From Cupriavidus sp. (GTDB lineage: Bacteria; Pseudomonadota; Gammaproteobacteria; Burkholderiales; Burkholderiaceae), in the NCBI GenBank assembly GCA_031180665.1, contig JAPSLP010000007.1, positions 62,001-126,000 on the forward strand: a stretch of 64,000 nucleotides of DNA. Reading direction: 5' to 3'. This document shows, one piece after another, positions 8,233-48,964 of the stretch. The position numbers and the translations under genes are program-made. Below the pieces are notes generated by a model. It ran no database searches and was not told where the DNA came from. It worked only from the letters and a program-made list of their open reading frames with translations. The stretch's first letter is position 1, and each line of letters begins with the position of its first letter.

Positions 8233-8337
8233 GGCAAATCCCGAGCTTCGCCCGCCAAGCCGCGTCGAATAACGCTCTCCGGGCGAGAACACGGCGCCCC
8301 CAAACGCCAGCGAGGTCCGCGTTCGGCGGCACGCAGC

Positions 8338-8371
8338 TTGCATACCCATCGCATCCATCTAATATATTAGA
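8338..8371 (+). promoter_or_regulatory. promoter with palindromic operator, site 2 of 3 (MFS transporter)
   Basis: TTGCAT (8338-8343) and TAATAT (8360-8365) are 16 bases apart and look like -35/-10 boxes. The -10 lies inside the perfect 14-base palindrome TCTAATATATTAGA (8358-8371). The same box-to-operator geometry occurs at 9946-9979. This arrangement fits repression by a protein that occludes RNA polymerase. Confidence 0.75.
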
Positions 8372-21749: not shown

Positions 21750-21765
21750 GGGCACGCTTCTTGCC
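21750..21765 (+). promoter_or_regulatory. sigma54-type -24/-12 element upstream of the PfpI gene
   Basis: GGGCACGcttcTTGCC matches TGGCACG-N4-TTGCW except at the first and last position, with GG and GC exactly 10 bases apart. It precedes the pfpI-like gene by about 155 bases. The 300-base gap between the repair operon and the pfpI gene holds this element and no other gene I can support. Confidence 0.5.
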
Positions 21766-21919
21766 GCTCCAGACCGAAGAGGACACGGACGCCGCCTTCC
21801 CGCAAGACCTGGGGCGCGGCGGCGAGCGCTTTTTTACCGCCGGCCGCAAAAGCTACAAGGTCGGGCCGGTCCGCGTCCGTATCGATGGATCGACTTCCCT
21901 GTGCAACGAGGACCTCAAG

Positions 21920-22531
21920 ATGAACCGGAACACGTCCCCCGACGCCAATCACCCCTTGACGGGCAAGCGCATCGCCTTCCTCGTCACCGACCTGTTCGAG
22001 CAGGTCGAACTGACCGGACCGCGCCAGGCCCTGCAGCAGGCCGGCGCCGAAACCGTGATCGTTGCCCCGCACGATGGCGAGGTGCAGGGCGTCCAGCACG
22101 ACAAGAAGGCCGACCGCTTCGGCGTGCAGGCGACGCTCGCACAGGCCCATCCCGACGATTTCGACGGCGTGGTGCTGCCCGGCGGCACCATGAACGCCGA
22201 CGCCCTGCGGCTGGACCAGGCCGCGCAGCGCTTCGTCAGGAAGATGCAGGACGACGGCAAGCCGATCGCGGTGATCTGCCATGGTCCGTGGCTGCTGGTC
22301 TCCGCGGGCCTGGTCAAGGGCCGCATGCTGACCAGCTGGCCGTCGCTGGCCGACGATATCCGCAACGCGGGCGGCGAATGGGTCGACCGCGAAGTCGTAC
22401 GCGACGGCAACTGGGTCAGCAGCCGCAAGCCGGACGATATCCCCGCGTTCAACCAGGAGATCGTCACGCTGTTCGGCGAACTGGGCAAACGTACGGGCCA
22501 GGGCAGCGAAGCGCGCGCCGGCCAGGCCTGA
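21920..22531 (+). CDS. PfpI/DJ-1 family type 1 glutamine amidotransferase-like protein
   Basis: Protein of 203 residues with the DJ-1/PfpI fold. It has a core start GKRIAFLVTDLFEQVELTGP, an acidic residue in the elbow region (LPGGTMNAD) and the nucleophile Cys in VICHGPWLL near residue 117. Members act as stress-induced chaperones, deglycases or peptidases; which activity applies here is unknown. The ATG at 21920 is preceded by ACGAGGACCTCAAG; the open frame upstream of it has no family similarity. It is followed 18 bases later by the RsbT-RsbX-like gene, suggesting one operon. A sigma54-type element lies upstream. The position at the edge of the glycogen/trehalose island fits a stress role. 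Confidence 0.88.
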   Translation: MNRNTSPDANHPLTGKRIAFLVTDLFEQVELTGPRQALQQAGAETVIVAPHDGEVQGVQHDKKADRFGVQATLAQAHPDDFDGVVLPGGTMNADALRLDQAAQRFVRKMQDDGKPIAVICHGPWLLVSAGLVKGRMLTSWPSLADDIRNAGGEWVDREVVRDGNWVSSRKPDDIPAFNQEIVTLFGELGKRTGQGSEARAGQA

Positions 22532-22549
22532 TGACCCCGGCACGCAGCC

Positions 22550-23734
22550 ATGCAGACTCGTATCGCCATCGACGCGACCGACGATCTCGCGAACGCGCAT
22601 GACGCGGCCACGGAACTGGCGGTGCGCTGCGGCTTCGGCGAAATCGCCACCGAACGGCTTGGCCGCGCAGCGGTCGCTGCGGCCACCGGCATGCTCGACC
22701 ACGCCGGTGGCGGCGTGCTGCACCTGCGGCCGCTACAGGAGGAGGTGACCGGGGCCGCCGCCCCGCAGGTCGAAATCCTGGCCGTCGACCGGCCGGGCCC
22801 GCGAGATGGCTCGCCCGGTGCCGACGGCAGGCAGGCGGGCGCCCGCGCGGGCGGCAGGCTCGCCGCGCTGTACGAACTGGTTACCGCGCTCGACCGCTAC
22901 GACAGCCCCGCCGGCTCGGTGATTCGCATGACGCTGTCCCCGGCGGATCGACCCGGCCCGGTGTCGCTGCCCGCCGTGGCGGTGGGCGTGGTGTGGGCGC
23001 CCGCCGACGGCGATGCCGCGCCGGGCGGGCTCAATATCCATTCGGCACGCGGGCTGTCGACCGTAGTGCTGGGCCTGGGACGCGGCGCGGAAGCGGCGCG
23101 ACGAGTCGCGGCGCTGCAGGGTTTCGGCGCACAGATGCAGCAGATCGACCGCGTCCGCGCCACGCTGCCCGGCGGCGGCGACATGGCGCTGGCGGCGGCC
23201 CAGATCGAAGCGCAGGCGGGCCATGTGCGCGTGGCCGGCGCCGGCCGCTTCTGCGCCTGCGTGATCGAAGCGGGCAGCGATGGCGCCGCCCCGCTCGCGG
23301 TACAGCCGTTGCTGCGTCAGCGCGAGACCCTGGTCGACGGCGGTGCGACGGTGCGCGGACCGCTGGCCCAGGCCCAGGCGGGCTGGCCATCGTACGCGCT
23401 GCTGGTGCTGCATGACGACGGCCTGTCCTGGCCGTGGACGCTGGAGGCCTATCCCGGCCTGCTGGCTTGCCATCCGGCCATCGTCGCCGCGGTGCTGCAC
23501 CGCGATTACTGCCGGCAGCCCGGCCACGGCTGCGTGCTGGTGTGCCGCCGCAGCGAGGAATGCAGCAAGCCCTCGCCCGCCCGCGCCCCCCTGCCCGCCG
23601 CCGCGGCGACGGGCGGCACGGTGGGGGTGAGCGCTGCCGAAGGAGACGGCAGCCGCCCCGTCGCGTCCGCACGGGGCCCGGGCGGCACCACCCGGCGCCG
23701 CCGCAGTCCCGGTGCGGGACGTCCGACTGCCTGA
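22550..23734 (+). CDS. degenerate RsbT-RsbX-like fusion (anti-sigma kinase plus PP2C-like phosphatase)
   Basis: Protein of 394 residues. Residues 1-70 resemble an RsbT/RsbW-type GHKL ATPase (VRCGFGEIATERLGRAAVAA, then GMLDHAGGGVLHL), but the N-box Glu and Asn that bind Mg-ATP are absent. Residues about 150-325 resemble the RsbX/SpoIIE PP2C-like phosphatase (STVVLGLGRGAEAARR, AGHVRVAGAGRFCACVIEAG, LLVLHDDGLSWPW, YPGLLACHPAIVAAVLHRDY). There the usual DGLGHG metal Asp is replaced by LGLGRG. The last 60 residues are Pro/Ala/Arg-rich. Both catalytic centres therefore look lost. Such proteins normally belong to partner-switching stress signalling with an STAS protein; none is encoded here. It is probably co-transcribed with the PfpI gene. 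Confidence 0.65.
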   Translation: MQTRIAIDATDDLANAHDAATELAVRCGFGEIATERLGRAAVAAATGMLDHAGGGVLHLRPLQEEVTGAAAPQVEILAVDRPGPRDGSPGADGRQAGARAGGRLAALYELVTALDRYDSPAGSVIRMTLSPADRPGPVSLPAVAVGVVWAPADGDAAPGGLNIHSARGLSTVVLGLGRGAEAARRVAALQGFGAQMQQIDRVRATLPGGGDMALAAAQIEAQAGHVRVAGAGRFCACVIEAGSDGAAPLAVQPLLRQRETLVDGGATVRGPLAQAQAGWPSYALLVLHDDGLSWPWTLEAYPGLLACHPAIVAAVLHRDYCRQPGHGCVLVCRRSEECSKPSPARAPLPAAAATGGTVGVSAAEGDGSRPVASARGPGGTTRRRRSPGAGRPTA

Positions 23735-23781
23735 GCCGGATCGCGCGGCACCGCTTCGGATACTTTCTGCCAGCGCGGCAC

Positions 23782-23794
23782 TGTAGTTTTTACA
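23782..23794 (+). promoter_or_regulatory. TGTAGTTTTTACA upstream element of the glgE promoter
   Basis: Inverted repeat TGTA-N5-TACA located about 125 bases upstream of the -24 element. It differs by one base from the element at 42112-42124 upstream of glgA. The distance suits an enhancer-binding protein; the binding protein is unknown. Confidence 0.5.
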
Positions 23795-23915
23795 GGCCAC
23801 ATTTCGGTGCTTGTCATTTCGGCAAGCGGCGCTCCTGCCGCAATCTCGCGCCATCCCTTGCGGGGCAAGGCAGGCTCCGTGGGCGCGTCGGTGCTTGTCC
23901 GACGCGGCGGTATAT

Positions 23916-23931
23916 TGGCACGCGCTTCGCA
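23916..23931 (+). promoter_or_regulatory. sigma54-type -24/-12 promoter of the glgE operon
   Basis: TGGCACGcgctTCGCA matches the consensus TGGCACG-N4-TTGCW at all but one position, with correct GG-N10-GC spacing. It ends 41 bases before the GTG start of glgE, so the mRNA leader would be about 30 bases. The 237 bases between the upstream gene and glgE hold this promoter and the TGTAGTTTTTACA element. Confidence 0.65.
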
Positions 23932-23971
23932 TCAGTGCCCGGACTGTCCTTCGCTTCCAGCGAGCCTATCC

Positions 23972-26900
23972 GTGCGCATCTGCCAGATCGACCCGAATTT
24001 CGTCCACCAGGCCAATGACGGCACCCTCGGGGCCTTGGCCCGGGCCAAGGCGCTCGGCTTCGATCATGTGCTGCTGGCAGGCGCCTCTCCCCTGCATACC
24101 CCGCCCGAGACGCTGGCCGCGATGGCCGCCCACTGCCGCGCGCAAGGGCTGGCCTGCCTGCTGGAGCTGGCGCTGGACCGCTATCCCGACGGCGCCGCGC
24201 CGATCGATCCGGGCTGGCGGCACGACGGTGCGATGCCCGATCCGCGCGACACCGACAACCATCTGCCGGGGGCCCGCCTTCGCTGGCACGACGAAGGCGC
24301 CGCCGGGGCGCTGGTGTCGTGGTGGACCGAACGGCTGCAGGGCCTGGCCGAACTCGATATTGCCGGCTATGTGTGCCGCGCGCCGGCCCGCGTGGCGGGG
24401 CGGCACTGGGCCAGGCTGATCGCGGCTTTGAAGGGCGCGGGCGCAGGCGCAGGCGGCAAGTCCAGCGGCGCGCGCCGCCCGCCGCTGATGCTGGCCTGGA
24501 CGCCCGGCACCAGCCCGGCGCAACTGGCCGACCTGGCCGGCGGCGGCTCGGGTAGCGGCTCGGGTAGCGGCTCAGGTACCGGCTCGGGTAGCGGCTTCGA
24601 TGGCGCCTTCTGCTCGCTGCCGTGGTGGGACTACCGCAGCCCCTGGCTGACCGAGGAAATCGCCCGGCTACGGCCGTTCGGCGCGGTACTGGCCGCGCCC
24701 GCGATGCAGGCCCGGGGCCTGGACGCGCTGGCGGCGCGGCGCGCCTTGTGGACCGCAGCAGCGGTGGGCGACGGCATCCTGGTGCCCGCCGACTTCGAAT
24801 GCGGTGGCGGCGATTGCGAGGAAGACCCGCCGCGCGGCGATGGCGATGCGGATGCGGGGCTCAGCTACGACCTGTCGCACGAGCTGATCCATGCCAATGC
24901 CTGGATCGCCGCGCGCGGTCCGGCCCCGGCGCTGGCCGTGCGGCAGCTCAGCGGCGCCGATGGCGCCCTGATCGCGCTGGCCCGGCTGCCGCTGCCCGCG
25001 GCCGGCGCGCCGCTGCCGCTGGCCATCGTCATCAATCCCGATACCCAGCAGCCGGCCAGCCTCGGCGCGGACCGCATCCTGAGCGCGCTGCCGCATGGCG
25101 CCGGCACGCTGCTGGCCGCCGACGGCGGCCCCGGCGGCGGCATCGAACCCGGCACGCTGCTCGATGCGCTGGACAACATCACGCTGGCCCCGGCCGGCGT
25201 GCAGCTGTTCCATGCCGCCCCGTCCGCGGCGCTGGCAGAGCCGGCCCGGCGCGAGGGCAAGCGCTTCGGCGCCTCGGTGCGCGCCGCCCTCGAGCGCAGC
25301 GTCGCCGCGGCGGTGCAGGCGCCGCGCATCGCCATCGAGAACGTCGCGCCGGCCTGCGACAACGGCCGCTTCGCGGTGCGCCGCGTGACCGGCGAGCGCG
25401 TCGAGGTCAGCGCGGATATCTGGATGGACGGCCACGACAAGCTCGCCGCCGTGGTGCTGTGGCGCGGTCCCGGCGAGGAGAGCTGGCACGAAGCGCCGAT
25501 GGTGCCGACCGTCAACGACCGCTGGGTCGGCAGCTTTGCGCTGACCGCGCTGGGCCGGCACGAATTCACCGTCGAGGCGTGGCACGATGCCTTCGCCACC
25601 TGGTGCGACGAGGTCACCAAGAAGAAGCAGGCCGGCGTCGACGTGACGCTGGAGATCGAGGAAGGCGCGCGCCTGGTCGCCAATACGCTGCGGCACGGCC
25701 GCGCCGGGGAGCGCGAGGCATCGCGCGCGCTGCGCGAGGTCGTCGCCGAACTGGAGGCCGCCGCCAAGGACGACCTGCGCCGGCTCGAGATCCTGCTGTC
25801 GCCGCACACCCGCACGCTGATGCAGGCCGCCGATCCGCGCCACTTCTCCACGCGCCATCCGGTCGCGATGCCGGTCGAGGCCGACCGGCTGGCGGCGCGC
25901 TTCGCCAGCTGGTACGAGCTCTTTCCGCGCTCGCAGAGCGGCGACGCGGAGCGCCACGGCACCTTCGACGACGTGATCCAGCGCCTGCCGGCGATCCGCG
26001 CGATGGGCTTCGACGTGCTGTACTTCCCGCCGATCCACCCGATCGGGCGCGCCAACCGCAAGGGCCGCAACAACAGCCTGCGCGCCGCGCCCGACGATCC
26101 GGGCAGCCCGTATGCGATCGGCTCGACCGAGGGCGGTCACGACGCGATCCATCCGCAGCTGGGAACCATCGAGGACTTCCGCCGCCTGCGCGCGGCCAGC
26201 GCCGCGGCGGGGCTGGAGCTGGCGCTGGACTTCGCGATCCAGTGTTCGCCCGACCATCCGTGGCTGCGCGAGCACCCCGAATGGTTCGCGCACCGGCCCG
26301 ACGGCTCGCTGCGCTACGCGGAGAATCCGCCGAAGAAATACGAGGACATCGTCAACGTCGACTTCTATGCCAAGGGCGGCGCCGCGCCCGCGCTGTGGAT
26401 CGCGCTGCGCGACGTGGTGATGTTCTGGGTCAGCGAGGGCGTGCGCATCTTCCGCGTCGACAACCCGCACACCAAGCCGCTGCCGTTCTGGGAATGGATG
26501 ATCGCCAACGTGCGCGAGCGCCATCCCGACACCATCTTCCTGGCCGAGGCCTTCACGCGGCCCAAGATGATGGCGCGGCTGGCCAAACTCGGCTTCAGCC
26601 AGTCGTACACCTACTTCACCTGGCGCAACCACAAGCGCGAGCTGATCGAGTACATGACGGAGCTGACGCGCACGCCGCTGCGCGAATACTTCCGCCCGCA
26701 CTTCTTCGTCAACACGCCGGATATCAACCCCTACTTCCTGCACGACTCGGGCCGGCCGGGCTTTCTGATCCGCGCCGCGCTGGCGACGCTGCTGTCCGGA
26801 CTCTGGGGCATGTACAACGGCTTCGAGCTGTGCGAAGGCACGCCGCTGGTGGTGGGAGGGGTGACCAAGGAGGAGTATCTCGATTCGGAGAAGTACCAGC

Positions 26901-27318
26901 TGCGCGCCTGGGACTGGCACCGGCCCGGCAATATCGTCGCCGAGATCACGCGGCTGAACCAGATTCGCGCCAGCCATCCGGCGCTGCAGAACCACCTCGG
27001 CCTGCGCTTCCTGCATGCGAGCGACGATGCGGTGCTGTACTTCGCCCGCTATGTGCCCACCTCGCACGAGCCGGACGCGGGCTTCGGCGACGACGTGCTG
27101 CTGGTCGCGATCAACCTGGACCCGCGCACCGTGCGCGAGGCCGATATCGAACTGCCGCTATGGGAGTGGGGCCTGCCCGATCACGGCGCGCTGGCTGCCG
27201 AGGAGCTGATGCATGGCCACCGCTTCCAGTGGCAAGGCAAGCATCAGCGCATCCGCCTCGATCCGCATGCGCTGCCGTTCGCCCTGTGGCATGTCAAGCC
27301 AAGACGCGAGGAGTCTGC

Positions 27319-27322
<4 letters not shown>
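23972..27322 (+). CDS. glgE: alpha-1,4-glucan:maltose-1-phosphate maltosyltransferase with an extra N-terminal barrel-like domain
   Basis: GlgE adds maltose from maltose 1-phosphate to the end of an alpha-1,4-glucan. Residues about 450-1116 are a complete GlgE: an N-terminal domain from [14 protein letters not shown], then a GH13 barrel with nucleophile Asp in [10 protein letters not shown], general acid Glu in FLAEAFTRP and third acid in NTPDINPYF. Residues 1-445 are an addition that resembles another GH13-type barrel ([31 protein letters not shown]) but lacks its catalytic acids and contains a Gly-Ser linker near residues 191-208. The usual enzyme has about 660-700 residues. The GTG at 23972 is chosen as the start of the first conserved-looking stretch ([10 protein letters not shown]). 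The stop overlaps treS as ATGA. The substrate is made by the maltokinase encoded next. Confidence 0.9.
24544..24595. repeat. 12-base tandem repeat encoding a Gly-Ser linker inside glgE
   Basis: GGCTCGGGTAGC and a variant recur four times in tandem and encode [15 protein letters not shown]. The repeat interrupts the degenerate N-terminal domain of the GlgE fusion and keeps the frame. Confidence 0.88.
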
Positions 27323-30744
<3,422 letters not shown>

Positions 30745-30753
30745 GACGCAATC

Positions 30754-33030
30754 ATGGCCACGATGACTTCCTCCGGCCCCGCGTCGACGCGGGGCCAGCA
30801 CGGGCACTCCGGACACGCCGAGCACGCCGCCGTGCAATACGAGGCGCTGCTCGATGCGCGCCATGCCGATCCGTTCTCGCTGCTCGGGCCGCACCGCGAG
30901 GGCGAGCGCACGGTCGTGCGCGCCTGCCTGCCCGGCGCGCAGGCGGTCGCGCTGGCCGACAAGCTCGGCAACGCGATCGGACCGATGCAATGCATCCACG
31001 CCGGCGGCATCTTCGCCGGCACGCTGCCGGACAAGCTCGGCCGGCGCGACTACCGGCTCGATATCACCTGGCCGGACGGTACCCGGCAGCTCAGCGCCGA
31101 CCCCTATTCCTTCGACCTGCTGCTGGGCGAACTGGACCTGCACCTGATCGGCGAGGGCCGGCATTTCGAACTGGGCCGCTGCCTGGGCGCCCAATGGATG
31201 ACGGTCGACGGCATCGAGGGCGTGCGCTTCGCGGTATGGGCGCCCAATGCGAGCCGCGTCTCGGTGATCGGCGACTTCAACGGCTGGCATCCGGCGCGCC
31301 ATCCGATGCGGCTGCGCTACGGCGTCGGCGTGTGGGAGCTGTTCGTGCCGGCCGGGCTCGGCGTGCAGCCGGGCAGCCGCTACAAGTACGATCTGAGCGA
31401 CGCGCACGGCCACCCGCTGCCCGACAAGGCCGATCCGCTGGCGCTCGCCACCGAGCTGCCGCCGGGCACCGCGTCGGTGGTGACGCAGGCGGGCGTATCG
31501 GCGCCGCCGTTCGGCTGGACCGACCAGGCGTGGATGAGCCGCCGTTCCAGCCAGGACCCGTATTCGACGCCGATGTCCATCTACGAGGTGCATGCCGGCT
31601 CGTGGCTGCGCGAAGTCAACGATCCCGCGCGCGGTTGGGAGATCCTGGGCGAGCGCCTGATCCCGTATGTGCGCGACCTGGGCTTTACCCATATCGAACT
31701 GCTGCCGATCACCGAGCATCCGTTCGGCGGCTCCTGGGGCTACCAGCCGCTGTCGCTGTTCGCGCCGACCGCGCGCTTCGGCCCGCCGCAGGCCTTCGCG
31801 GCCTTCGTCGACCGCTGCCACGAGGCCGGCATCGGCGTGATCCTCGACTGGGTGCCGGCCCACTTCCCGACCGATCCCCACGGCCTGGCCGAGTTCGACG
31901 GCACCGCGCTGTACGAACACCAGGACCCGCGCGAAGGCTTCCACCAGGACTGGAACACGCTGATCTACAACCTCGGACGCAACGAGGTGCGCGGCTTCCT
32001 GCTGGCGAGCGCCCTGCACTGGCTGCGCGAGTTCCATATCGACGGGCTGCGCGTCGACGCGGTCGCCTCGATGCTGTACCGCGACTACAGCCGCAAGGCC
32101 GGACAATGGGTGCCGAACCGCTTCGGCGGCAGGGAGAACCTCGAGGCGGTGTCCTTCCTGCGCGAGCTGAACACGGTGGTGCGCGAGCGCTGCCATGGCG
32201 CGATGATGATCGCCGAGGAATCGACCGCGTGGCCGGGCGTGACCGCGCCCGTCGACAGCGGCGGCCTGGGCTTCACGTTCAAATGGAACATGGGGTGGAT
32301 GCACGACACGCTGCGCTACCTGTCGCACGATCCGGTGCACCGCGCCTGGCACCACCAGGACATGACCTTCGGCATGGTGTACGCCTGGTCCGAGGCCTTC
32401 GTGCTGCCGCTGTCGCACGACGAGGTCGTCCACGGCAAGGGCTCGCTGATCGGCAAGGCGCCGGGCGACCACTGGCAGAAGCTGGCGAACCTGCGCGCGT
32501 ATTTCGGCTTCATGTGGACCCACCCGGGCAAGAAGCTGCTGTTCATGGGCGGCGAGCTTGCGCAATGGCACGAATGGAATCACGAGAGCGAACTCGACTG
32601 GGCGCTGCTCGACCATCCGAACCATCGCGGCATGCAGATGCTGATCCGCGACCTGAACCGCGCCTATCGCGAACTGCCCGCGCTGCACGCCTGCGACCAT
32701 CATCCGGGGGGCTTCAGCTGGGTGATCGGCGACGACAGCCATAACAGCGTGTTCGCCTACCTGCGACGCGCCGCGCCGGACAGCGACGACGTGGTGCTCG
32801 TCGTGGTCAACATGACGCCTTTGCCCCGGCCGGGCTACCGCCTGGGCGTGCCGCACGCCGGGCGCTGGCAGGAGATCGTCAATACCGATGCCGCCTGCTA
32901 TGGCGGCAGCAACGTCGGCAACGGCGGCGAGCTCTTCGCCGAAGCGGCGCCCTCGCACGGGCTGCCCGCCTCGCTGTCGCTGACGCTGCCGCCGCTGGCG
33001 ATGCTGCTGCTGCGCCATCTGCCCGACTAG
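30754..33030 (+). CDS. glgB: 1,4-alpha-glucan branching enzyme
   Basis: GlgB of 758 residues cuts alpha-1,4 chains and rejoins them as alpha-1,6 branches. It carries the long N-terminal N1 domain (25-130) and a CBM48 domain (about 140-230, [20 protein letters not shown]). The GH13 barrel has [17 protein letters not shown], nucleophile Asp in [14 protein letters not shown], Glu in [10 protein letters not shown] and Asp in [10 protein letters not shown], followed by the C-terminal beta domain. About 25 extra residues rich in Gly/His precede N1. It sits between treS-mak and glgX (11-base gap to the latter) in the glg operon and supplies branch points to the glucan made by GlgE or GlgA. Confidence 0.96.
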
Positions 33031-33041
33031 GAGGGTCCTGC

Positions 33042-35171
<2,130 letters not shown>

Positions 35172-35241
35172 CGGCCCGTTCGTCGGCCATCGTCCGCCAT
35201 CGTCCGCCATCCCGACCAGTCAGCCACAAAGGAGCCCCACC

Positions 35242-37578
35242 ATGCCGCGTCAAGCCAATCCCGATGCCGCGCTAGCATCGCTGCACCTGCTCGCCGAGCG
35301 CGCCGGCCTGCTGGTGCATTGGCAGGATGCCGAGGGGCGCGATCGCGTGGTCCCGGAGGAGTCGCTGCGCACCGTGCTCGAACGGCTGGGCCTGCCGTGC
35401 AAGACCATCGGCCAGTGCGAGGCCTCGCGCGCCCGCATGCTGGCCGACGATGCCGCCACCGCGCTGGCGCCGCTGCTGACGGCCGACCAGGGCAAGCCGA
35501 TCCGCGTGCCGCTCGCGCACACCCGGCAGGAGCAGCCATTCCGGCTCGAGCTGGAAGACGGCAGCGTGCAGACCGGCGTGGCCCGGCGCGACGCGCGCGG
35601 CGCGCTGATCGTGCCGGCGGTGCAGAGCGCTGGCTACCATCGCCTGCTGCTGGGCGATGTCGAGGTGAAAGTGGCGGTCGCGCCGTCGCGCTGTTTCGGC
35701 GTGCAGGACGCGCTGCGCGGCATCGGCCTGTCCGAGCAGGAGCGTATGCGGCGCAAGCCCTGGGGTCCGTCGGTGCAGGTCTACGGCCTGCGCCGCGGCG
35801 CGCCGGCCGGCATGGGCGACTTGAGCGCGCTGGCGATGTTCGCCGAGGCGGCCGCGCGCGAAGGCGCCGACGCGGTGGCGATCAGCCCGCTGCACGCCGG
35901 CTTTGCTGCCTTTCCCGAACGTTACAGTCCCTACTCGCCGTCCAGCCGGCTGTTCCTGAACGTGCTTTATGCCGACCCGGCGCCGGTGTTCGGCCACGCC
36001 GCGGTGGCGCGCGCCATCTCGGCGCTGCAACTGGGCGGCGTCCTGCAGACGCTGGAGTCCAGGGCCGAGATCGACTGGCCGGCGGTGGCGCGGGCGCGGT
36101 TGAAGCTGACGCGCTGGCTGTGGGATCACCGGGACCAGATGCTGCCCGCGGACGCCGCCGAGGATCTGGCGACCTTCCGCAGCAAGGGCGGCACGCCGCT
36201 GCTGGCGCACGCCGCCTTCGAGGCCCTGCAGGCCCAGCACGTGGCCGAGGCGGGCACTCGCGCCGAGATACAGGTGGCCGGGGACTGGCGCCGCTGGCCC
36301 GTCACGCACCGCTCCCCGCAAGACGCCGCGCTGTCGGCGTTCGCCAGTGCCTTCCCCGACGAGATCGGCTATCACGTGTTCCTGCAGTGGCTGGCCGAGG
36401 ACGGCCTGCGCGCAGCGCAGCGCAGCGCCCGCGATGCCGGCATGGCGATCGGGCTGATCGGCGACCTGGCGGTCGGCACCGACCCCACCGGCAGCCATGC
36501 CTGGACCCGGCAGAACGAGATGCTGCAGGGATTTTCGGCCGGCGCCCCGCCCGATGTGTACAACGCGTTGGGGCAGAGCTGGGGCATCACGGTGTTCTCG
36601 CCGCGCGGCATGCGCCGGCACGGCTACACGGCCTTCATCGAGATGCTGCGGGCGAACCTCGCGCATGTCGGCGGGCTGCGCATCGACCATGCGCTCGGGC
36701 TGGCGCGCGTCTGGCTGGTGCCCGAAGGCGCGCCGCCGCAATCGGGCGCCTATCTGCGCTACCCGATGGACGATCTGCTGCGGTTGATCGCACTCGAATC
36801 GTGGCGCCATCGCGCCATCATCATCGGCGAGAACCTCGGCACGGTGCCGGCCGCCTTCAACACCACGCTGGCCGAGCGCGGCATGCTGGGCATCGATGTG
36901 CTGTGGTTCGAGCGGGCGCAGCCGGACAGCGAAGACAAGGACCAGACGGCCGGGAGCTCGGGCGGAAAAAAAAGACGCTCGACCAGCGAAGAGACCGGGG
37001 CGAAGAACAGCAATGCGAGCGGCCATGCGCCCGGCAACACGGACGGCCGGCCCGCACCGCAGCCGGGGGAAGACACCGCTACGCCCGGGCCGGAAGCGCC
37101 TGCGGCGTTCGTTGGGCCCGAGCGTTGGCCGCCCAATGCGATCGCAACCTCGACCACGCACGATCTGCCCACCATCGCCGGCTGGTGGGCTGGGCAGGAC
37201 ATCACCTGGCGCGCACGTCTGGACCAGCTGGGTCCCGATGTCACCGAGGCCGCCGCCCGCGCCGAGCGGGCGCGCGACCGCCAGGCGCTGTGGCAGGCGC
37301 TGTGCGAAGCGGGGCTGGCCAAGGGCGAGGCGCCCGACCCGGACCGCGCGCCGGTGGCCACGATCCTTGCCTGGCTCGCGCGCGCCCGCACCCCGCTGCG
37401 GCTGGTACCGGTGGAGGATCTGCTGGCCGATGTCGAGCAGCCCAATCTGCCGGGTACCACCAGCGGCCATCCGAACTGGCAGCGCCGGCTGCGCTTCGAT
37501 GTGCAGACGCTGTTCAGCCAGCCGGGGGTCCAGCGCCGTATCGAGGCGCTGCGCTCGGGACACGCGCCCAGGAGTTGA
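35242..37578 (+). CDS. malQ: 4-alpha-glucanotransferase (amylomaltase) with an internal disordered insertion
   Basis: MalQ of 778 residues moves 4-alpha-glucan segments between oligosaccharides (GH77). Seen in order: an N-terminal helical region, GMGDLSALAMFAEAAAREG, AISPLHAGF, nucleophile Asp in GLRIDHALGLARVW, Glu in IIIGENLGTVP and Asp in TTHDLPTIAGWW. Between the last two, residues about 558-623 form a hydrophilic, low-complexity insertion (QPDSEDKDQTAGSSGGKK onward), with a run of eight A bases at 36966-36973. Reading stays in frame through it. The ATG follows ACAAAGGAGCCCCACC. The 70-base gap after glgX contains short CGTCCGCCAT repeats and no terminator, so it may belong to the same operon. 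Confidence 0.93.
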   Translation: MPRQANPDAALASLHLLAERAGLLVHWQDAEGRDRVVPEESLRTVLERLGLPCKTIGQCEASRARMLADDAATALAPLLTADQGKPIRVPLAHTRQEQPFRLELEDGSVQTGVARRDARGALIVPAVQSAGYHRLLLGDVEVKVAVAPSRCFGVQDALRGIGLSEQERMRRKPWGPSVQVYGLRRGAPAGMGDLSALAMFAEAAAREGADAVAISPLHAGFAAFPERYSPYSPSSRLFLNVLYADPAPVFGHAAVARAISALQLGGVLQTLESRAEIDWPAVARARLKLTRWLWDHRDQMLPADAAEDLATFRSKGGTPLLAHAAFEALQAQHVAEAGTRAEIQVAGDWRRWPVTHRSPQDAALSAFASAFPDEIGYHVFLQWLAEDGLRAAQRSARDAGMAIGLIGDLAVGTDPTGSHAWTRQNEMLQGFSAGAPPDVYNALGQSWGITVFSPRGMRRHGYTAFIEMLRANLAHVGGLRIDHALGLARVWLVPEGAPPQSGAYLRYPMDDLLRLIALESWRHRAIIIGENLGTVPAAFNTTLAERGMLGIDVLWFERAQPDSEDKDQTAGSSGGKKRRSTSEETGAKNSNASGHAPGNTDGRPAPQPGEDTATPGPEAPAAFVGPERWPPNAIATSTTHDLPTIAGWWAGQDITWRARLDQLGPDVTEAAARAERARDRQALWQALCEAGLAKGEAPDPDRAPVATILAWLARARTPLRLVPVEDLLADVEQPNLPGTTSGHPNWQRRLRFDVQTLFSQPGVQRRIEALRSGHAPRS

Positions 37579-37612
37579 GGCGTCGAGCGGCGCCGCCATA
37601 CCGTCACGGCGT

Positions 37613-37635
37613 CATAGCGACATAGCGTCATCGCG
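37613..37635 (+). repeat. 8-base tandem repeat CATAGCGN upstream of the response regulator
   Basis: CATAGCGA, CATAGCGT and CATCGCGT lie in tandem at 37613-37636, about 25 bases upstream of the sigma54-type element at 37660. Their role is unknown. Confidence 0.5.
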
Positions 37636-37659
37636 TGCGGTTCGGCGAGCGGCGGCCCC

Positions 37660-37675
37660 TGGCGCGCCGCTTGCA
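37660..37675 (+). promoter_or_regulatory. sigma54-type -24/-12 promoter of the response regulator gene
   Basis: TGGCGCGccgcTTGCA differs from TGGCACG-N4-TTGCW at one position, with correct GG-N10-GC spacing. It ends 40 bases before the GTG start at 37715. Confidence 0.6.
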
Positions 37676-37714
37676 TGGCAAGGTCGAAACGATTTGCCAA
37701 CACAAGGTATCTCC

Positions 37715-38071
37715 GTGCGAACCGTACTCGTCGTCGATGACGATCCCGACGTGGGCCATGCGATGGCCAGTGCCCTGCGCCGAGCGGGATTTGCCGTCGA
37801 GTTGGCCGATGATGGGCTGGCCGGCTTCGATGCCGCGCAGCGGCTGCACCCCTCGGTGGTCGTGACCGACTGGGTGATGCCGCGCGGCGACGGCGCCCTG
37901 CTTTGCCATCTGCTGCTCGGCGATGCGTCGCTAAGTCGTACACCGATTGTCGTTTTCACCAGCATCGAGACGCTGCCGGAGGTGCCCAATCCCAACGTGC
38001 GCTACTGCCGCAAGCCCTGCGCGCCCGAAGCGCTGATCCGCACCATCGACGAACTGCTGGAACACAGCTGA
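37715..38071 (+). CDS. single-domain (CheY-like) response regulator
   Basis: Receiver domain of 118 residues without an output domain. It contains the acidic pocket (VVDDDPDVG), the phosphorylated Asp in VVVTDWVMP near residue 52, the switch Thr in VVFTS and the conserved Lys in YCRKPC. It would relay phosphate to or from a kinase or bind a partner protein. The start is GTG at 37715 with AAGGTATCTCC upstream. No kinase adjoins it; the hybrid histidine kinase at 48995 is the nearest possible partner, which is inference only. It has its own sigma54-type promoter, unlike a simple continuation of the glgE-malQ operon. It is convergent with the topoisomerase gene, 16 bases away. Confidence 0.9.
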   Translation: MRTVLVVDDDPDVGHAMASALRRAGFAVELADDGLAGFDAAQRLHPSVVVTDWVMPRGDGALLCHLLLGDASLSRTPIVVFTSIETLPEVPNPNVRYCRKPCAPEALIRTIDELLEHS

Positions 38072-38087
38072 ATCCCGGCACGGCAAA

Positions 38088-39200
38088 CTAGCCGCGTCCG
38101 CCGGCCGCCGTGCCCTGCGCTTCGAGCAGCGCCAGCAGCCTGGTCTCGTCCATGCTCAACGCCGCGACCGCGCGACGGCACTGCGCGCAGGCGGCCATGC
38201 TGTCGTTCATATAGGCGTCGACCACCGTCGGGTGGACATAGCACTGCCGGCATACCGCCACCGTATTGCGCAGGCGCCGGGCCACGATCTTGATGGTGGC
38301 CGCCACCGCGCGCTTGCGGGCGGCCTCGCTCTGCGCCGCCGGCGCCTTGCGCAGTTCGGCCAGCGCATGCACGCTGCCGGCCCAGGTGCGGAAGTCCTTG
38401 GCGGTGAAATCCTCGCCGGCCAGTTCGCGCAGGTACGCGTTGACATCGTCCGAGCCGACCTCGCGGATCTCGCCGTCCTCGTCGCGGTACTTGAACAGAT
38501 GCTGGCCCGGCAGGTCCGCGCAGGTACGCACCAGCCCCGCGAGTTGGCGGTCCTGCAGCGTTACGTCGTGCTCGACCCCGCTCTTGCCGGTAAACAGGAA
38601 GCGCAGCCGGCTGCCGCGCACCTGTACATGGCGCCGGCGCAGCGTGGTCAGGCCATAGGTGCGATTCTGGCGCGCGTAGCGCCGGCTGCCGACCCGCACC
38701 AGTGTGGCGTCGAGCAGCAGCAGTACGGCGGCCAGCACCTTCTCGCGCGGAATGCCGTTGCGCTGCAGGTCGCGCCGGGCGCGTCGCCGCAGTCGCGGCA
38801 ACGCGCGCCCGAACGCGAGCAGGCGGTCGTACTTGTTCTCGTCGCGCAGCGCGATCCATGCGGGGTGGTAGCGATACTGCTTGCGACCGCGGGCGTCGCG
38901 GCCGGTGGCCTGGATATGTCCGCGGGGGTCGGGACAGATCCAGACGTCCTGGTAGGCCGGGGGAATCGCCAGCGCGTCGATTCGGGCGATGGTGTCGCGA
39001 TCGCGGATGCGGCTGCCGTCCGGGGCGAAGTAGGCGAAGCGGCCGCGCACCAGGCGCCGCGTGATGCCGGGCCTGGTGTCGTTGACATAGCGCACGCCGG
39101 GCGGCAACGCCTCACGCGCCGGCGCTGCCGCGGTCGCTCCCGTGGTTCCTGCTGTCGTTCCGGCTGTCACGCTCTCAGCGGCTGGCGTCGACGCGCGCAT
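38088..39200 (-). CDS. DNA topoisomerase IB (bacterial/poxvirus type)
   Basis: Type IB topoisomerase of 370 residues that relaxes supercoils through a 3'-phosphotyrosine. Its N-terminal beta domain includes GVRYVNDTRPGITRR and WICPDPRGHIQATGRDARGR. The catalytic domain has Arg in LVRVGSRRYARQN, GLTTLRRRHV, Lys in FTGKSGVEHDV, Arg/His in DFTAKDFRTWAG and Tyr in CRQCYVHPTVVDAY near residue 320. The C-terminal 40 residues contain paired Cys (CYVHP, CAQC). The ATG at 39200 is preceded by GGGAGCCACG; an Ala/Thr-rich 30-residue leader precedes the fold. It is transcribed opposite to the glycogen genes and divergently from glgP, with a 354-base gap. Topoisomerase IB genes are often found among stress and repair genes. 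Confidence 0.93.
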   Translation of the reverse strand: MRASTPAAESVTAGTTAGTTGATAAAPAREALPPGVRYVNDTRPGITRRLVRGRFAYFAPDGSRIRDRDTIARIDALAIPPAYQDVWICPDPRGHIQATGRDARGRKQYRYHPAWIALRDENKYDRLLAFGRALPRLRRRARRDLQRNGIPREKVLAAVLLLLDATLVRVGSRRYARQNRTYGLTTLRRRHVQVRGSRLRFLFTGKSGVEHDVTLQDRQLAGLVRTCADLPGQHLFKYRDEDGEIREVGSDDVNAYLRELAGEDFTAKDFRTWAGSVHALAELRKAPAAQSEAARKRAVAATIKIVARRLRNTVAVCRQCYVHPTVVDAYMNDSMAACAQCRRAVAALSMDETRLLALLEAQGTAAGGRG

Positions 39201-39336
39201 CGTGGCTCCCGTCTCCACCCTTCCCGATCGGCGCCGCGCCGGCCGCTCGTCGCCCGCTCGTCGCGCCGTTTGTCGTGGATGGCAATCCGACATTAGTCCG
39301 GGGCGACGCCCGCTGCATCCCGCCGCGCGCGCAATC

Positions 39337-39435
39337 GTTTGTAGGAAAGGGACGACATCGGCGCCACTGGTGTTCCCGCTCCCCCATGCGCCGGAGCGGG
39401 AAGCCAACCGCAGGTCCTAACCGTTTTCTACAAAC
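39337..39435. promoter_or_regulatory. inverted pair GTTTGTAGRAAA upstream of glgP
   Basis: GTTTGTAGGAAA (39337-39348) and TTTTCTACAAAC (39424-39435, the reverse complement of GTTTGTAGAAAA) are inverted copies 75 bases apart. They lie 160 and 73 bases upstream of the -24 element of glgP, in the topoisomerase-glgP divergent region. They share TGTAG with the elements upstream of glgE and glgA. The rest of this 354-base region is GC-rich and holds no gene that I can support. Confidence 0.45.
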
Positions 39436-39506
39436 TCACCAATAATTGGCAAGAACTGCCCGGCGCCCTGCCCGCCCGGCCGAGCGCAACACGCTTACCT
39501 TGGGCA

Positions 39507-39522
39507 AGGTACGTCTCTTGCA
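39507..39522 (+). promoter_or_regulatory. sigma54-type -24/-12 promoter of glgP
   Basis: AGGTACGtctcTTGCA has GG-N10-GC spacing and matches TGGCACG-N4-TTGCW at 10 of 12 positions, with a perfect -12 half. It ends 32 bases before the glgP ATG, leaving room for a short leader that contains the ribosome-binding site CGGAGG. Confidence 0.6.
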
Positions 39523-39554
39523 ACTCCCTTCGGTTTTCCAACCGGAGGACCGCC

Positions 39555-42111
<2,557 letters not shown>

Positions 42112-42116
<5 letters not shown>

Positions 42117-42124
42117 TTCTTACA
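42112..42124 (+). promoter_or_regulatory. TGTAGTTCTTACA upstream element of the glgA promoter
   Basis: Inverted repeat TGTA-N5-TACA that overlaps the glgP stop codon and lies about 100 bases upstream of the -24 element of glgA. It is identical to the element before glgE except for one central base. Confidence 0.5.
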
Positions 42125-42161
42125 CCGACCGCAGGAGGCTTTACGCAGCGCTTGTTTCAAT

Positions 42162-42179
42162 AGTTACGAACGAGTTACG
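42162..42179 (+). promoter_or_regulatory. 11-base direct repeat AGTTACG upstream of glgA
   Basis: AGTTACG occurs at 42162-42168 and again at 42173-42179, exactly 11 bases apart, with a related TTTACGC at 42140. Direct repeats at one helical turn are typical of OmpR/PhoB-type regulator sites; this assignment is inference. Apart from this and the flanking elements, the 226-base glgP-glgA gap has no gene. Confidence 0.4.
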
Positions 42180-42221
42180 CAAACCGTTGAACGCAAAGCC
42201 TTTGCGAAATTCGCGCCGCGC

Positions 42222-42237
42222 TGGCATGCCATTCGCA
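42222..42237 (+). promoter_or_regulatory. sigma54-type -24/-12 promoter of glgA-treZ-treY
   Basis: TGGCATGccatTCGCA has GG-N10-GC spacing and matches TGGCACG-N4-TTGCW at 10 of 12 positions. It shares the TTCGCAT -12 variant with the glgE promoter. The leader to the glgA start would be about 95-110 bases. Confidence 0.55.
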
Positions 42238-42342
42238 TGGCAGACCAACGCTTCACGCGCCGGCCAGCCGACAACGCTGTGCGAGTGAAGTGCAACAGCG
42301 GCGGTGCAGCCCGGCCGCCGCCCCACCACCAGCGCACTCAGA

Positions 42343-46282: not shown

Positions 46283-48964
46283 ATGTCGTCAGCCCCAGCC
46301 AACGCGTCTCATCCCGCCGCCGCTCACCCGGCCCCCCACGCCGGCGATCACGCCACCGACCGCGGCAACACCATCGTGCCGCGCGCCACGGCCCGCCTGC
46401 AGTTGCATGCCGGCTTCACCTTCGCCGACGCCGAGCGCCAGGTCGACTATCTCGCCTCGCTCGGCGTCAGCCACCTTTACCTGTCGCCGATCTTCGCGGC
46501 CAAGCCAGGCTCGACGCACGGCTACGACGTCATCGACTTCCAGCGCATCAACCCCGAGCTGGGCGGCGAGGCTGGCTTCCAGGCGCTGGCCGGACGCGCG
46601 CGCGCCACGGGGCTGGGCGTGATCATCGACATCGTGCCGAACCATATGGCGGCCAGCTCGACCCACAACCGCTGGTGGTCCGACGTGCTGGCGCGCGGCG
46701 CGGAGAGTCCCTACGCCGGGCACTTCGATATCGACTGGCATTCGCCCGATCCCGAGCTGCATGGCAAGGTGCTGCTGCCGATCCTGGGTCGCCCGTATTG
46801 GGAAACGCTGCAGGCGGGCGAGATTGCGGTGCGCAGCGACGGCCAGCACCATTGGCTGCAATACGGCGAACACGACGTGCCGTTGTCCGAGGAATCGATC
46901 GCGTCGCTCGATGCGGGCAGCGGCGGCGCCGGCTTCGATGCGGCGGCGCCGGGCGGGCTGGAGCGGCTGCATGCGCTGCTGGAGCAGCAGAACTATCGCC
47001 TTGCCTGGTGGCGCACCGCGGCGGACGAACTGAACTGGCGGCGCTTCTTCGAGGTCAGCGAGCTGGTGGGGGTGCGCGTCGAGCAGCCGCAGGTATTCGA
47101 CGACGTGCATGCGCTGGTGCTGCGGCTTGCGCGCGATGGCCTGATCGACGGCGTGCGCGTCGATCATGTCGATGGCCTGGCCGACCCGGGCGGCTATTGC
47201 CAGCAACTGCGCGGGCATCTGAACGCCGCGATGGCGGCGCGCGGCGCGCGGCCCTGGATCGTGATCGAGAAGATCCTGGCCGAGAGCGAAACGCTGCGCA
47301 CCGAATGGCAGATCGACGGCACCACCGGCTACGACTTCATGGACGAGGTCGGCGCGGTGCTGCACGACGGCGCCGGCGAAACGACGCTGACGACGCTGTG
47401 GCAGCAGGTCAGCGGCGACAGCCAGGAGTATGGCGAGCAGGTGCGCCAGGCGCGCCGCCATCTGCTGGCGCGTTTTCTCGTCACCGAATTCGAAGGCGCC
47501 TGCCGCCGCCTGCATGCCTGCGCGCGCGCCGAGCCCGCCACGCGTGACCTGACGCTGGCAAGCTGGCGCCGGGCGCTGGCCGCGCTGCTCGAGCCGCTGG
47601 AGGTCTACCGCACCTATCTGGGCGAACACGCGTGGTCGCGCGAGGATCGCCTGCGGCTGGAAACCGCCGCCGAGCTGGCCCGCCGCGCGGTGCGGCCCGA
47701 CGACACCGCTACCGTCGATCGGCTGCTGGCCTGGCTGTGCGCCGGCCCGCATGCCAGCGGCGCGCTGCGCGAGGCGCGCGCCCGCGTTCAGCAGTTGATG
47801 CCGCCGCTGGCCGCCAAGGCCGCCGAAGATACGATGTTCTACCGCTACGGGCGGCTGCTGTCGCGCAACGAGGTCGGCAGCCACCCGGCCACGCTGGCGA
47901 TGCCGCCCGATCGCTTCCATGCCCGCATGGCGGTGCGTGCGCAGGTCTGGCCGCATGCGATGCTGGCGACCGCCACGCACGACCACAAGCGCGGCGAGGA
48001 CATGCGGATGCGGCTCGCGGTGCTGAGCGAACTCGCGCCGGAATGGCAGGCAGCGGTCGGCCAGTGGGAAGCGCGGGCGTTGCGGCTGGCAGGTTCCGCC
48101 GAGCGCGCCGCGGGTCCCGATGGCGCCGATCGGCTGATGCTGTATCAAACCCTGGTGGGCGCCTGGCCGCCCGAACTGCCCGCCGACCGCGATGCCGGCG
48201 ACCGGGACGTGCAGACCCTGCTCGAGCGCGTGGGCGCGTGGCAGACCAAGGCGGTGCGCGAGGCGAAGCGGCACGGCCACTGGACCCGGCCGGACGAGGC
48301 CTACGAACAGGCCTACGCGGGGTTGCTGCAGGCGATGGCGCAAAGCGATCTGCTGGGCAGCATGGCCCGCTTCGCGCAGCGCATCGCGCCGGCCGGCGCG
48401 CTCAACAGCCTGGCGCAGACGCTGCTGCAACTGACCGCGCCCGGCGTGCCGGACCGCTATCAGGGCACCGAGGGCTGGGACTTCAGCCTGGTCGACCCAG
48501 ACAACCGGCGCCCGGTCGATTACGATGCGCTGCGCGCGGCGCTGGCGTGCACGGCGGGCTGGCAGAACTGGCTGGAGCAATGGCGCGACGGCCGCATCAA
48601 GGTGCAATTGGTACGCGCGCTGCTGGCTGCGCGCCAGGAACAACCGGCACTGTTCCGCGATGGCGGCTACCGGCAACTGCACGGCGAGGGACCGGCGGCC
48701 TCGCATGTGCTGGCATTCGAGCGGCGCCACGGCGACGAGCGCGCCATCGCGGTCACCGCGCGGCTCGCCGCAAGACTGGTGCAGGATCGGCCGGCGGTGG
48801 CGCAGGCGGCATGGGGCGACACGCTGCTGTGCGTCGGCGAACCGGGCGCGAGCCGCTGGACCGATGCGCTGACTGGCCGCACGCTGTCCGCGCCGAACGG
48901 CCGACTGCGTGTTGCCGAGGTGCTGGAGCCGCTGCCGGTCGCGCTGCTGCGCCGTACGGGCTGA
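46283..48964 (+). CDS. treY: malto-oligosyltrehalose synthase
   Basis: TreY of 893 residues converts the reducing-end bond of a maltodextrin from alpha-1,4 to alpha,alpha-1,1. The family start RATARLQLHAGFTFADAERQ is followed by YLSPIFAAKPGSTHGYDV and DIVPNHMA. Nucleophile Asp is in DGVRVDHVDGLADP, Glu in WIVIEKILAESE and Asp in ATATHDHKRGEDMR; LLQLTAPGVPDRYQGTE and the C-terminal domain complete it. About 33 extra N-terminal residues rich in His/Pro/Ala precede the core. Last gene of glgA-treZ-treY. It converges with the histidine kinase gene, 30 bases apart, with no clear terminator hairpin between. Confidence 0.95.
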   Translation: MSSAPANASHPAAAHPAPHAGDHATDRGNTIVPRATARLQLHAGFTFADAERQVDYLASLGVSHLYLSPIFAAKPGSTHGYDVIDFQRINPELGGEAGFQALAGRARATGLGVIIDIVPNHMAASSTHNRWWSDVLARGAESPYAGHFDIDWHSPDPELHGKVLLPILGRPYWETLQAGEIAVRSDGQHHWLQYGEHDVPLSEESIASLDAGSGGAGFDAAAPGGLERLHALLEQQNYRLAWWRTAADELNWRRFFEVSELVGVRVEQPQVFDDVHALVLRLARDGLIDGVRVDHVDGLADPGGYCQQLRGHLNAAMAARGARPWIVIEKILAESETLRTEWQIDGTTGYDFMDEVGAVLHDGAGETTLTTLWQQVSGDSQEYGEQVRQARRHLLARFLVTEFEGACRRLHACARAEPATRDLTLASWRRALAALLEPLEVYRTYLGEHAWSREDRLRLETAAELARRAVRPDDTATVDRLLAWLCAGPHASGALREARARVQQLMPPLAAKAAEDTMFYRYGRLLSRNEVGSHPATLAMPPDRFHARMAVRAQVWPHAMLATATHDHKRGEDMRMRLAVLSELAPEWQAAVGQWEARALRLAGSAERAAGPDGADRLMLYQTLVGAWPPELPADRDAGDRDVQTLLERVGAWQTKAVREAKRHGHWTRPDEAYEQAYAGLLQAMAQSDLLGSMARFAQRIAPAGALNSLAQTLLQLTAPGVPDRYQGTEGWDFSLVDPDNRRPVDYDALRAALACTAGWQNWLEQWRDGRIKVQLVRALLAARQEQPALFRDGGYRQLHGEGPAASHVLAFERRHGDERAIAVTARLAARLVQDRPAVAQAAWGDTLLCVGEPGASRWTDALTGRTLSAPNGRLRVAEVLEPLPVALLRRTG

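What the first reader, a model, noticed from the sequence alone, without database searches (positions are those of the whole stretch)
21750..42237. Sigma54-type promoters in front of five transcription units of the glycogen/trehalose island
Sequences matching TGGCACG-N4-TTGCW at 10-11 of 12 positions, each with exact GG-N10-GC spacing, stand upstream of pfpI (21750), glgE (23916), the CheY-like gene (37660), glgP (39507) and glgA (42222). Four of the five end within about 30-110 bases of the start codon. The two best (glgE, response regulator) have a single mismatch. The bare GG-N10-GC core is common in GC-rich DNA, so the extended matches and the placement carry the argument. Glycogen and trehalose genes in other proteobacteria are usually tied to RpoS, AlgU or catabolite control; I know of no RpoN control of a GlgE/TreYZ island.
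Basis: partly seen in the sequence, partly recalled or inferred. Interest (0 to 1): 0.85.

Follow-up and report, generated by a model that had tools for sequence, protein, structure and literature searches.

The report
Sigma-54 promoters on glycogen-trehalose island
In Cupriavidus bacteria the genes that make storage glycogen and the protectant sugar trehalose carry conserved sigma-54-type promoters, the two main ones with a conserved upstream site, and a likely pair of activator proteins can be named, so the control circuit can be tested directly.

Summary
The five elements are present as described. Counts alone do not exceed chance: up to 3 mismatches, 125 in the window against 129 in shuffles; up to 1 mismatch genome-wide, 57 against 40 for the control. 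Comparison of genomes decides. Of 50 same-genus genomes whose glgE start could be placed, 48 have a -24/-12 element upstream together with an inverted repeat, TGTA-N5-TACA-like, 91-133 nt before it. The exact repeat occurs 6 times in the own genome; 2 of these lie before glgE and glgA in this window. The glgA pair recurs in 5 of 5 testable relatives. The RR, glgP and pfpI elements are conserved in the window's clade but lack a full repeat. In 14 genomes orthologues of two sigma-54 activators sit directly beside this glgE promoter. RpoN dependence of such genes is already published for Pseudomonas (PMC8202526); new here are the direct promoters, the upstream site and the activator pair. No experiment was done.

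The parts
21750..21765 (+). sigma-54-like element of pfpI, GGGCACGCTTCTTGCC, 154 nt before the start codon
   Evidence: GGGCAYGN3YTTGCC kept in 7 of 7 aligned clade members, own included; absent before pfpI of L193, outside the clade; no upstream repeat
21920..22531 (+). pfpI (DJ-1/PfpI family)
   Evidence: Pfam PF01965
23782..23794 (.). upstream site of glgE, TGTAGTTTTTACA (inverted repeat TGTA-N5-TACA)
   Evidence: conserved across Cupriavidus
23916..23931 (+). sigma-54 promoter of glgE, TGGCACGCGCTTCGCA, 40 nt before the start codon
23972..27322 (+). glgE (maltosyltransferase)
   Evidence: Pfam PF11896, PF21702
27340..30744 (+). treS-type gene (start approximate; frame ends 30744)
   Evidence: open frame; translated and matched in relatives; name by recall, no family scan of this frame was run
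30754..33030 (+). glgB
   Evidence: Pfam PF22019, PF02922
33042..35171 (+). glgX-type gene
   Evidence: Pfam PF02922, PF00128; name by recall
35242..37578 (+). malQ
   Evidence: Pfam PF02446
37660..37675 (+). sigma-54-like element of the response regulator gene, TGGCGCGCCGCTTGCA, 39 nt before the start codon
   Evidence: 6 of 6 relatives with the gene have an element at up to 2 mismatches
37715..38071 (+). single-domain response regulator
   Evidence: Pfam PF00072
39340..39357 (.). half-site-like block TGTAGGAAAGGGACGACA upstream of glgP
   Evidence: similar in 6 of 7 aligned clade members
39422..39434 (.). second half-site-like block CGTTTTCTACAAA upstream of glgP
   Evidence: similar in 6 of 7 aligned clade members
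39507..39522 (+). sigma-54-like element of glgP, AGGTACGTCTCTTGCA, 32 nt before the start codon
   Evidence: kept in 6 of 6 clade relatives at 2-3 mismatches
39555..42116 (+). glgP
   Evidence: Pfam PF00343
42112..42124 (.). upstream site of glgA, TGTAGTTCTTACA
   Evidence: conserved in 5 of 5 testable clade relatives
42222..42237 (+). sigma-54 promoter of glgA, TGGCATGCCATTCGCA, 105 nt before the start codon
42343..44115 (+). glgA
   Evidence: Pfam PF08323
44176..46263 (+). treZ-type gene, downstream of glgA
   Evidence: Pfam PF11941, PF00128; name by recall
46283..48964 (+). treY-type gene
   Evidence: Pfam PF00128; name by recall

Best explanation
The island is switched on through RpoN (sigma-54). 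An NtrC-type response regulator (here called EBP1: receiver, AAA+ and Fis-type helix-turn-helix domains) and/or a partner without a receiver domain (EBP2), which in the own genome share the recognition helix SLKTLYNRL, bind the inverted repeat TGTA-N5-TACA about 90-135 nt upstream of the -24 element. They remodel sigma-54 polymerase by ATP hydrolysis through a GAFTGA-type loop. This drives the glgE-treS-glgB-glgX-malQ unit and the glgA-treZ-treY unit and, through weaker or degenerate sites, probably the response regulator, glgP and pfpI. Shown here: the elements, the repeats, their conservation, the activator genes and their place beside glgE in 14 genomes. Inferred: that EBP1/EBP2 bind the repeat, that transcription depends on RpoN, and that a carbon/energy shift or related stress is signalled to the receiver of EBP1.
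For: Element plus repeat before glgE in 48 of 50 same-genus genomes, element 35-401 nt before the start codon. In 46 aligned best elements (own and C. lacunae twice included; GG and GC were required by the search) T at the first position, CA after GG and the T after the element are invariant while the spacer varies. Exact repeat 6 times in the own genome, 2 of them at glgE and glgA. Combination of element (up to 2 mismatches) and GTAN4TTACA (up to 1), 50-170 nt apart: exactly 2 in the window, both strands, glgE and glgA; 22 in the 51 fetched stretches outside the 520 nt before glgE, 17 of them at the treZ promoter. glgA pair: 5 of 5. EBP1 in 53 of 60 genomes at E 1e-120, one of these (G016) with 58% paralogues only; EBP1 and EBP2 beside the glgE promoter in 14. 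EBP1-bearing genomes: 47 of 47 have the site. Motifs GESGTGKE, GSFTGA/GGFTGA, GTLFLDE present. A T-rich repeat (1 mismatch) and an element (1 mismatch) stand before the gene that follows the EBP1 unit in the own genome. In G062, another genus, EBP1 and glgE are divergent neighbours with the combination between them. In C. necator H16 a set of genes that I take for the homologues is co-induced with sigma-54-driven hox genes and with aco genes (PMC4377017, passages and section 9).
Against: G015 has the site (element 1 mismatch, repeat 1) but no EBP1 orthologue (best 42%). RR, glgP and pfpI lack a full repeat. The number of repeats in the window with up to 1 mismatch, 2, is what shuffles give (mean 1.83); placement and conservation, not number, carry the argument. 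Among activator neighbourhoods of the own genome a combination with the same mismatch counts (1 and 1) also occurs near another activator (L248) and one in the window's contig flank (L253). Outside Cupriavidus only 1 of 20 glgE upstream stretches from 10 genera shows the combination at this strictness (L333), although EBP1 is in 145 of 220 family genomes. The 12-base repeat pattern also recurs without a sigma-54 element. No binding, transcript or mutant data.
Confidence: 0.78

Rival explanations
1. The sigma-54 promoters are real but the activator is another protein, for example NtrC (nitrogen) or NorR (its GT-N7-AC core, recalled, fits the repeat).
For: The repeat contains GT-N7-AC; the own genome has an NtrC (L002, 686.6 bits against cut-off 558.6) and 14 strong PF00158 genes in all. 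G015 has the promoter without an EBP1 orthologue. A combination of equal mismatch counts lies near another activator, in L248.
Against: One repeat per promoter, whereas NorR targets usually carry three (recalled); the NtrC consensus as I recall it does not fit. EBP1/EBP2 sit beside the promoter in 14 genomes, and of the combinations near activators in the own genome only theirs has the T-rich repeat seen at glgE and glgA.
Confidence: 0.15
2. Chance matches in GC-rich DNA; the island is driven by other promoters.
For: Motif counts in window and genome are near controls.
Against: Conservation against controls and the paired repeat. The sigma-70-type consensus scan of 23600-42400 (the pfpI upstream not included) found one site, on the minus strand inside glgP, as many as shuffles give.
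Confidence: 0.03
3. Only glgE and glgA have sigma-54 promoters; the RR, glgP and pfpI elements are conserved for another reason or are relics.
For: No full repeat at these three; glgP and pfpI match at 10 of 12 positions only, and glgP (outside the clade) and pfpI of L193 lack the element.
Against: Elements kept in all clade members examined, 32-39 nt before the start for RR and glgP in the window; glgP has half-site-like blocks.
Confidence: 0.3

Closest known systems
RpoN-dependent glg/tre genes of Pseudomonas fluorescens and P. aeruginosa (PMC8202526, passages seen; it cites Damron et al. 2012, which I did not read)
   Same: Homologous genes (glgA, glgX, glgB, glgE, malQ, treZ, treY, treS) are lower in an rpoN mutant.
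   Different: RNA-seq of a mutant; the passages that I saw name no promoter, upstream site or activator for these genes. In 6 Pseudomonas loci scanned the only element with up to 1 mismatch, in L032, stands before a 121-codon frame, not before an island gene.
NtrC-family two-component activators of sigma-54 (NtrC, DctD, AtoC type)
   Same: EBP1 has receiver, AAA+, GAFTGA-type loop and Fis-type HTH.
   Different: EBP1 is below the cut-offs of all 25 NCBIfam models shown, of 90 matched; it is paired with a divergent receiver-less partner with the same recognition helix.
CbrAB of Pseudomonas (PMC6296734, search listing with the start of the abstract)
   Same: A regulatory system that answers carbon limitation; by recall CbrB is an NtrC-type sigma-54 activator.
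   Different: Its abstract calls it exclusive to pseudomonads; by recall another binding site. No sequence comparison was made.

Membership tests
sigma-54-dependent promoter | -24 GG and -12 GC with 10 nt between, near TGGCACG-N4-TTGCW | tested here: met
sigma-54-dependent promoter | rpoN in the genome | tested here: met
   PF04552 at C73:10372, E 6.7e-69
sigma-54-dependent promoter | upstream activator site about 80-150 nt upstream (range by recall), glgE and glgA | tested here: met
   a conserved repeat is there; that an activator binds it is not shown
sigma-54-dependent promoter | the same for RR, glgP and pfpI | tested here: inconclusive
   no full repeat; half-site-like blocks at glgP
sigma-54-dependent promoter | transcription lost without RpoN, start about 12 nt after GC | not testable with these tools
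   needs 5' mapping and an rpoN mutant
NtrC-type activator (EBP1) | receiver, Sigma54_activat, HTH_8 domains | tested here: met
NtrC-type activator (EBP1, EBP2) | Walker A and B, GAFTGA-type loop | tested here: met
   (GSFTGA and GGFTGA)
NtrC-type activator (EBP1, EBP2) | binds TGTA-N5-TACA | not testable with these tools
   only adjacency and co-occurrence
NtrC orthologue | EBP1 over the NCBIfam ntrC cut-off | tested here: not met
   382.1 bits against 558.6

The most novel reading that the evidence does not exclude
Burkholderiaceae run a sigma-54-based storage and survival regulon (GlgE glycogen, trehalose, small stress-type proteins and perhaps end-joining repair genes) under a conserved pair of activators with the same recognition helix, one phosphorylatable and one without a receiver, in the place that RpoS, AlgU or EcfG hold elsewhere.
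Probability: 0.35. Interest if true: 0.75.

Novelty: new member of a known kind. Interest (0 to 1): 0.58.

Why it matters
It offers a mechanism for the RpoN dependence of GlgE/trehalose genes, which I found in print only as mutant RNA-seq in Pseudomonas: a promoter, an upstream site and two candidate activators, each removable in Cupriavidus necator H16. It would link carbon storage and trehalose protection to a dedicated two-component sigma-54 switch, in a genus used for polymer production (recalled). Searches that combined RpoN, sigma-54, enhancer-binding protein, Cupriavidus or Burkholderia with glycogen, trehalose or glgE (listings only, capped at 8 to 15 rows) showed no report of this in Cupriavidus or its family; the library lacks most subscription journals.

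Tried and rejected
Motif counts as proof: rejected, they equal chance. Sigma-70-type control: one match in 23600-42400, minus strand, as in shuffles. Rfam and tRNA scans: nothing. Named loci: all 80 scanned, a near-exact repeat with an element of up to 3 mismatches only in C. lacunae L021; a scan of 21 of the 80 for elements with up to 1 mismatch gave Caballeronia calidae L043 (repeat 1 mismatch, before glgA), Paraburkholderia L033 and L034 (about 215 nt before glgE, repeat 3 mismatches), and L029 and L032. Genus-wide 12-base repeat search as a regulon finder: of 20 stretches chosen from its hits and fetched, 8 show an element of up to 3 mismatches downstream of the repeat and 12 do not, so the repeat alone does not define a regulon.

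Rows dropped: of 54 same-genus genomes with glgE the own genome is the window, G043 and G046 were not fetched (no 5' end in the matches), 51 were fetched; L211 (G058) was left out of the table (no 5' end where expected), and for L187 (G038) the start was set by hand, which leaves 50. L321 (G049) ended at its contig end before glgA, so 5 of 6 fetched relatives could be tested for glgA. Limits (450 nt, 3 and 2 mismatches) were set after seeing the data; its Fisher value (0.0024) ignores relatedness.
Full report
What was checked. The window lies in a 5.47 Mb genome (94 contigs, about 92% complete). Its genus holds genome G014, whose contig C235 has the same length (179151) as the Cupriavidus lacunae contig of locus L021, so the genus is taken to be Cupriavidus. 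The island reads pfpI, an unnamed gene, glgE, treS, glgB, glgX, malQ, a single-domain response regulator (RR), a topoisomerase IB gene on the other strand, glgP, glgA, treZ and treY (some names by recall).

Observation. The five elements are where the finding says, with 2, 1, 1, 2 and 2 mismatches of 12 and the exact core spacing. Counts alone prove nothing: up to 3 mismatches, 125 in the window against a mean of 129 in shuffles; up to 1 mismatch, 57 in the genome against 40 for the reversed pattern. rpoN is present once. Of 19 PF00158 matches 14 are strong; none of the 19 is on the window's contig C89.

Conservation. GlgE was found in 54 of 60 same-genus genomes; 51 stretches of up to 20 kb around it were fetched. 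In the 200 nt before glgE (49 stretches) 33 have an element with up to 1 mismatch, 41 up to 2 and 44 up to 3; reverse strand 2, 2 and 5; mononucleotide shuffles 0.05, 0.55 and 2.7. Many genomes are close relatives, but between subclades the flanks differ and the distance to the start changes while the element stays. Three genomes with nothing in 200 nt (G005, G041, G003) have element and repeat 283-401 nt upstream. G016 and G037 lack them. The RR gene occurs in 6 of the fetched relatives, all with an element of up to 2 mismatches; glgP of the same 6 has it at 2-3 mismatches; pfpI keeps it in 7 of 7 aligned, own included. Against: only 4 of 46 glgP upstreams in the genus have it at up to 2 mismatches, all in the window's clade, and pfpI of L193 lacks it. 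Operon-internal genes treS, glgX and malQ give 0 of 148 at up to 1 mismatch; glgB gives 0 of 48 at up to 1, but 5 of 48 at up to 2 and 25 of 48 at up to 3.

The upstream site. The upstream regions showed an inverted repeat, TGTA-N5-TACA, roughly 100 nt before the element. The exact repeat occurs 6 times in the own genome, the control pattern 26 times; 2 of the 6 lie before glgE (23782) and glgA (42112). With 1 mismatch allowed the window has no further copy, though 2 copies are what shuffles give (mean 1.83), so it is place and conservation that count. The combination of element (up to 2 mismatches) and repeat (GTAN4TTACA, up to 1) occurs twice in the window, at glgE and glgA. In the 51 stretches (2.02 million positions on both strands) it occurs 22 times outside the 520 nt around the glgE promoter: 17 between glgP and treZ, one before a glgA (L211), three near position 490-615 of L165, L174 and L195 (gene not identified) and one on the reverse strand of L177. 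The glgA pair is kept in L316-L320, 5 of 5 testable relatives, spacing 109-111 nt. In other Cupriavidus a like pair stands before treZ: of 27 genomes with a scanned glgP-treZ gap (C. lacunae counted once) 22 have an element of up to 3 mismatches and a repeat of up to 1; L169, L177, L186, L202 and L209 do not, L186 and L209 being G016 and G037 and L202 being G015.

The activator. Thirteen stretches holding the 14 strong activator genes of the own genome were fetched with three others. Combinations with up to 1 mismatch in the repeat are three: L239 (element 1 mismatch, GTACTTTTTACG, 85 nt), L248 near another activator, and L253 in the flank of the window's contig, all with 1 and 1 mismatches; only that of L239 has the T-rich repeat. 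It stands before a small gene (SP1) that follows activator EBP1 (receiver, AAA+, HTH) and the gene after it; EBP1 is divergent from a second activator, EBP2, without receiver. Both carry the helix SLKTLYNRL; of the other activator C-termini printed none has it (L008 was not printed). EBP1 matches in 53 of 60 genomes at E 1e-120, in G016 only as 58% paralogues. In 14 genomes EBP1 and EBP2 lie directly upstream of glgE with the promoter between EBP2 and glgE (EBP2 in two matches in G005). The record of Cupriavidus sp. EM10 (apparently G047 itself, same length) and that of C. campinensis show the same order. Genomes with an EBP1 orthologue have the site in 47 of 47; of three without, G015 has it, G016 and G037 do not. 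G004 and G052 keep EBP1 without glgE, so EBP1 should have other targets.

Wider view. At E 1e-150 EBP1 is in 145 of 220 and GlgE in 131 of 220 family genomes. In G062, another genus, EBP1 and glgE are divergent neighbours with element (1 mismatch) and exact repeat between them, and a second pair stands before SP1; in G075, a third genus, element and repeat (1 mismatch each) precede glgA; likewise in Caballeronia calidae L043. But of 20 glgE upstream stretches from 10 further genera only L333 shows the combination. Possible other targets in Cupriavidus: SP1 (pair in L239, L309, L314 and L315; element without repeat in L312; nothing in L311), a gene at own C3:165112 and its counterparts L219 and L220 (element 3 mismatches), and a gene at the far end of the island in L221 and L222 (2 mismatches; 4 in L223).

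Literature. PMC8202526 (passages) reports lower glgA, glgX, glgB, glgE, malQ, treZ, treY and treS in an rpoN mutant of P. fluorescens and cites the like for P. aeruginosa. PMC4377017 (passages, section 9) lists H16_B1557 (glycosidase-like), H16_B1558 (trehalose synthase), glgB, pulA, treY, malQ and glgP of C. necator H16 among the top 50 changed genes, raised after the carbon source shift, with hox genes, whose promoters it says use sigma-54, and aco genes; that these are the homologues of this island is my reading of names and order. The review PMC11046441 has no RpoN, sigma54 or NtrC in the part held.

Mechanism. Shown: elements, repeats, conservation, presence and position of the activators. 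Inferred: binding of EBP1/EBP2 to the repeat, RpoN dependence, phosphorylation of EBP1 by a neighbouring kinase, and the carbon/energy signal. I put sigma-54 control of glgE and glgA at about 0.9, EBP1/EBP2 as activators at about 0.75 (lowered from 0.8 on account of L248), and sigma-54 control of the other three units at about 0.65.

Noticed in passing
window 8327-8342: A further 1-mismatch sigma-54-like element, CGGCACGCAGCTTGCA, 73 nt before an MFS transporter gene (8416-9795); no repeat upstream.
   Followed up: partly
window 21830-21860: A block with TTTTTTAC and GCAAAAGCTACAAG, well kept among most clade members, lies between the pfpI element and its start codon; it resembles two half repeats.
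   Followed up: no
window 48998-51142: A hybrid histidine kinase gene, with a Cache match below its cut-off, stands convergent to treY; it could be part of the signalling.
   Followed up: no
L239:10977-13259 and L239:13919-16993: A hybrid kinase gene and a LigD gene lie near EBP1 in the own genome, with two small genes without Pfam match.
   Followed up: partly
L224, L225, L227, L229: GTATTTTTTACA recurs in the same surroundings in four genomes without a sigma-54 element downstream.
   Followed up: no
L197:2216 (minus strand): The glgE repeat seems also to serve a divergent element, CGGTACGCTTCTTGCC.
   Followed up: no
L165:602, L174:494, L195:615: A further element and repeat pair recurs in three genomes upstream of an unidentified gene.
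   Followed up: no
genomes G038, G043, G047, G058: glgE is matched there in several pieces, so the gene looks broken in these genomes or assemblies.
   Followed up: no
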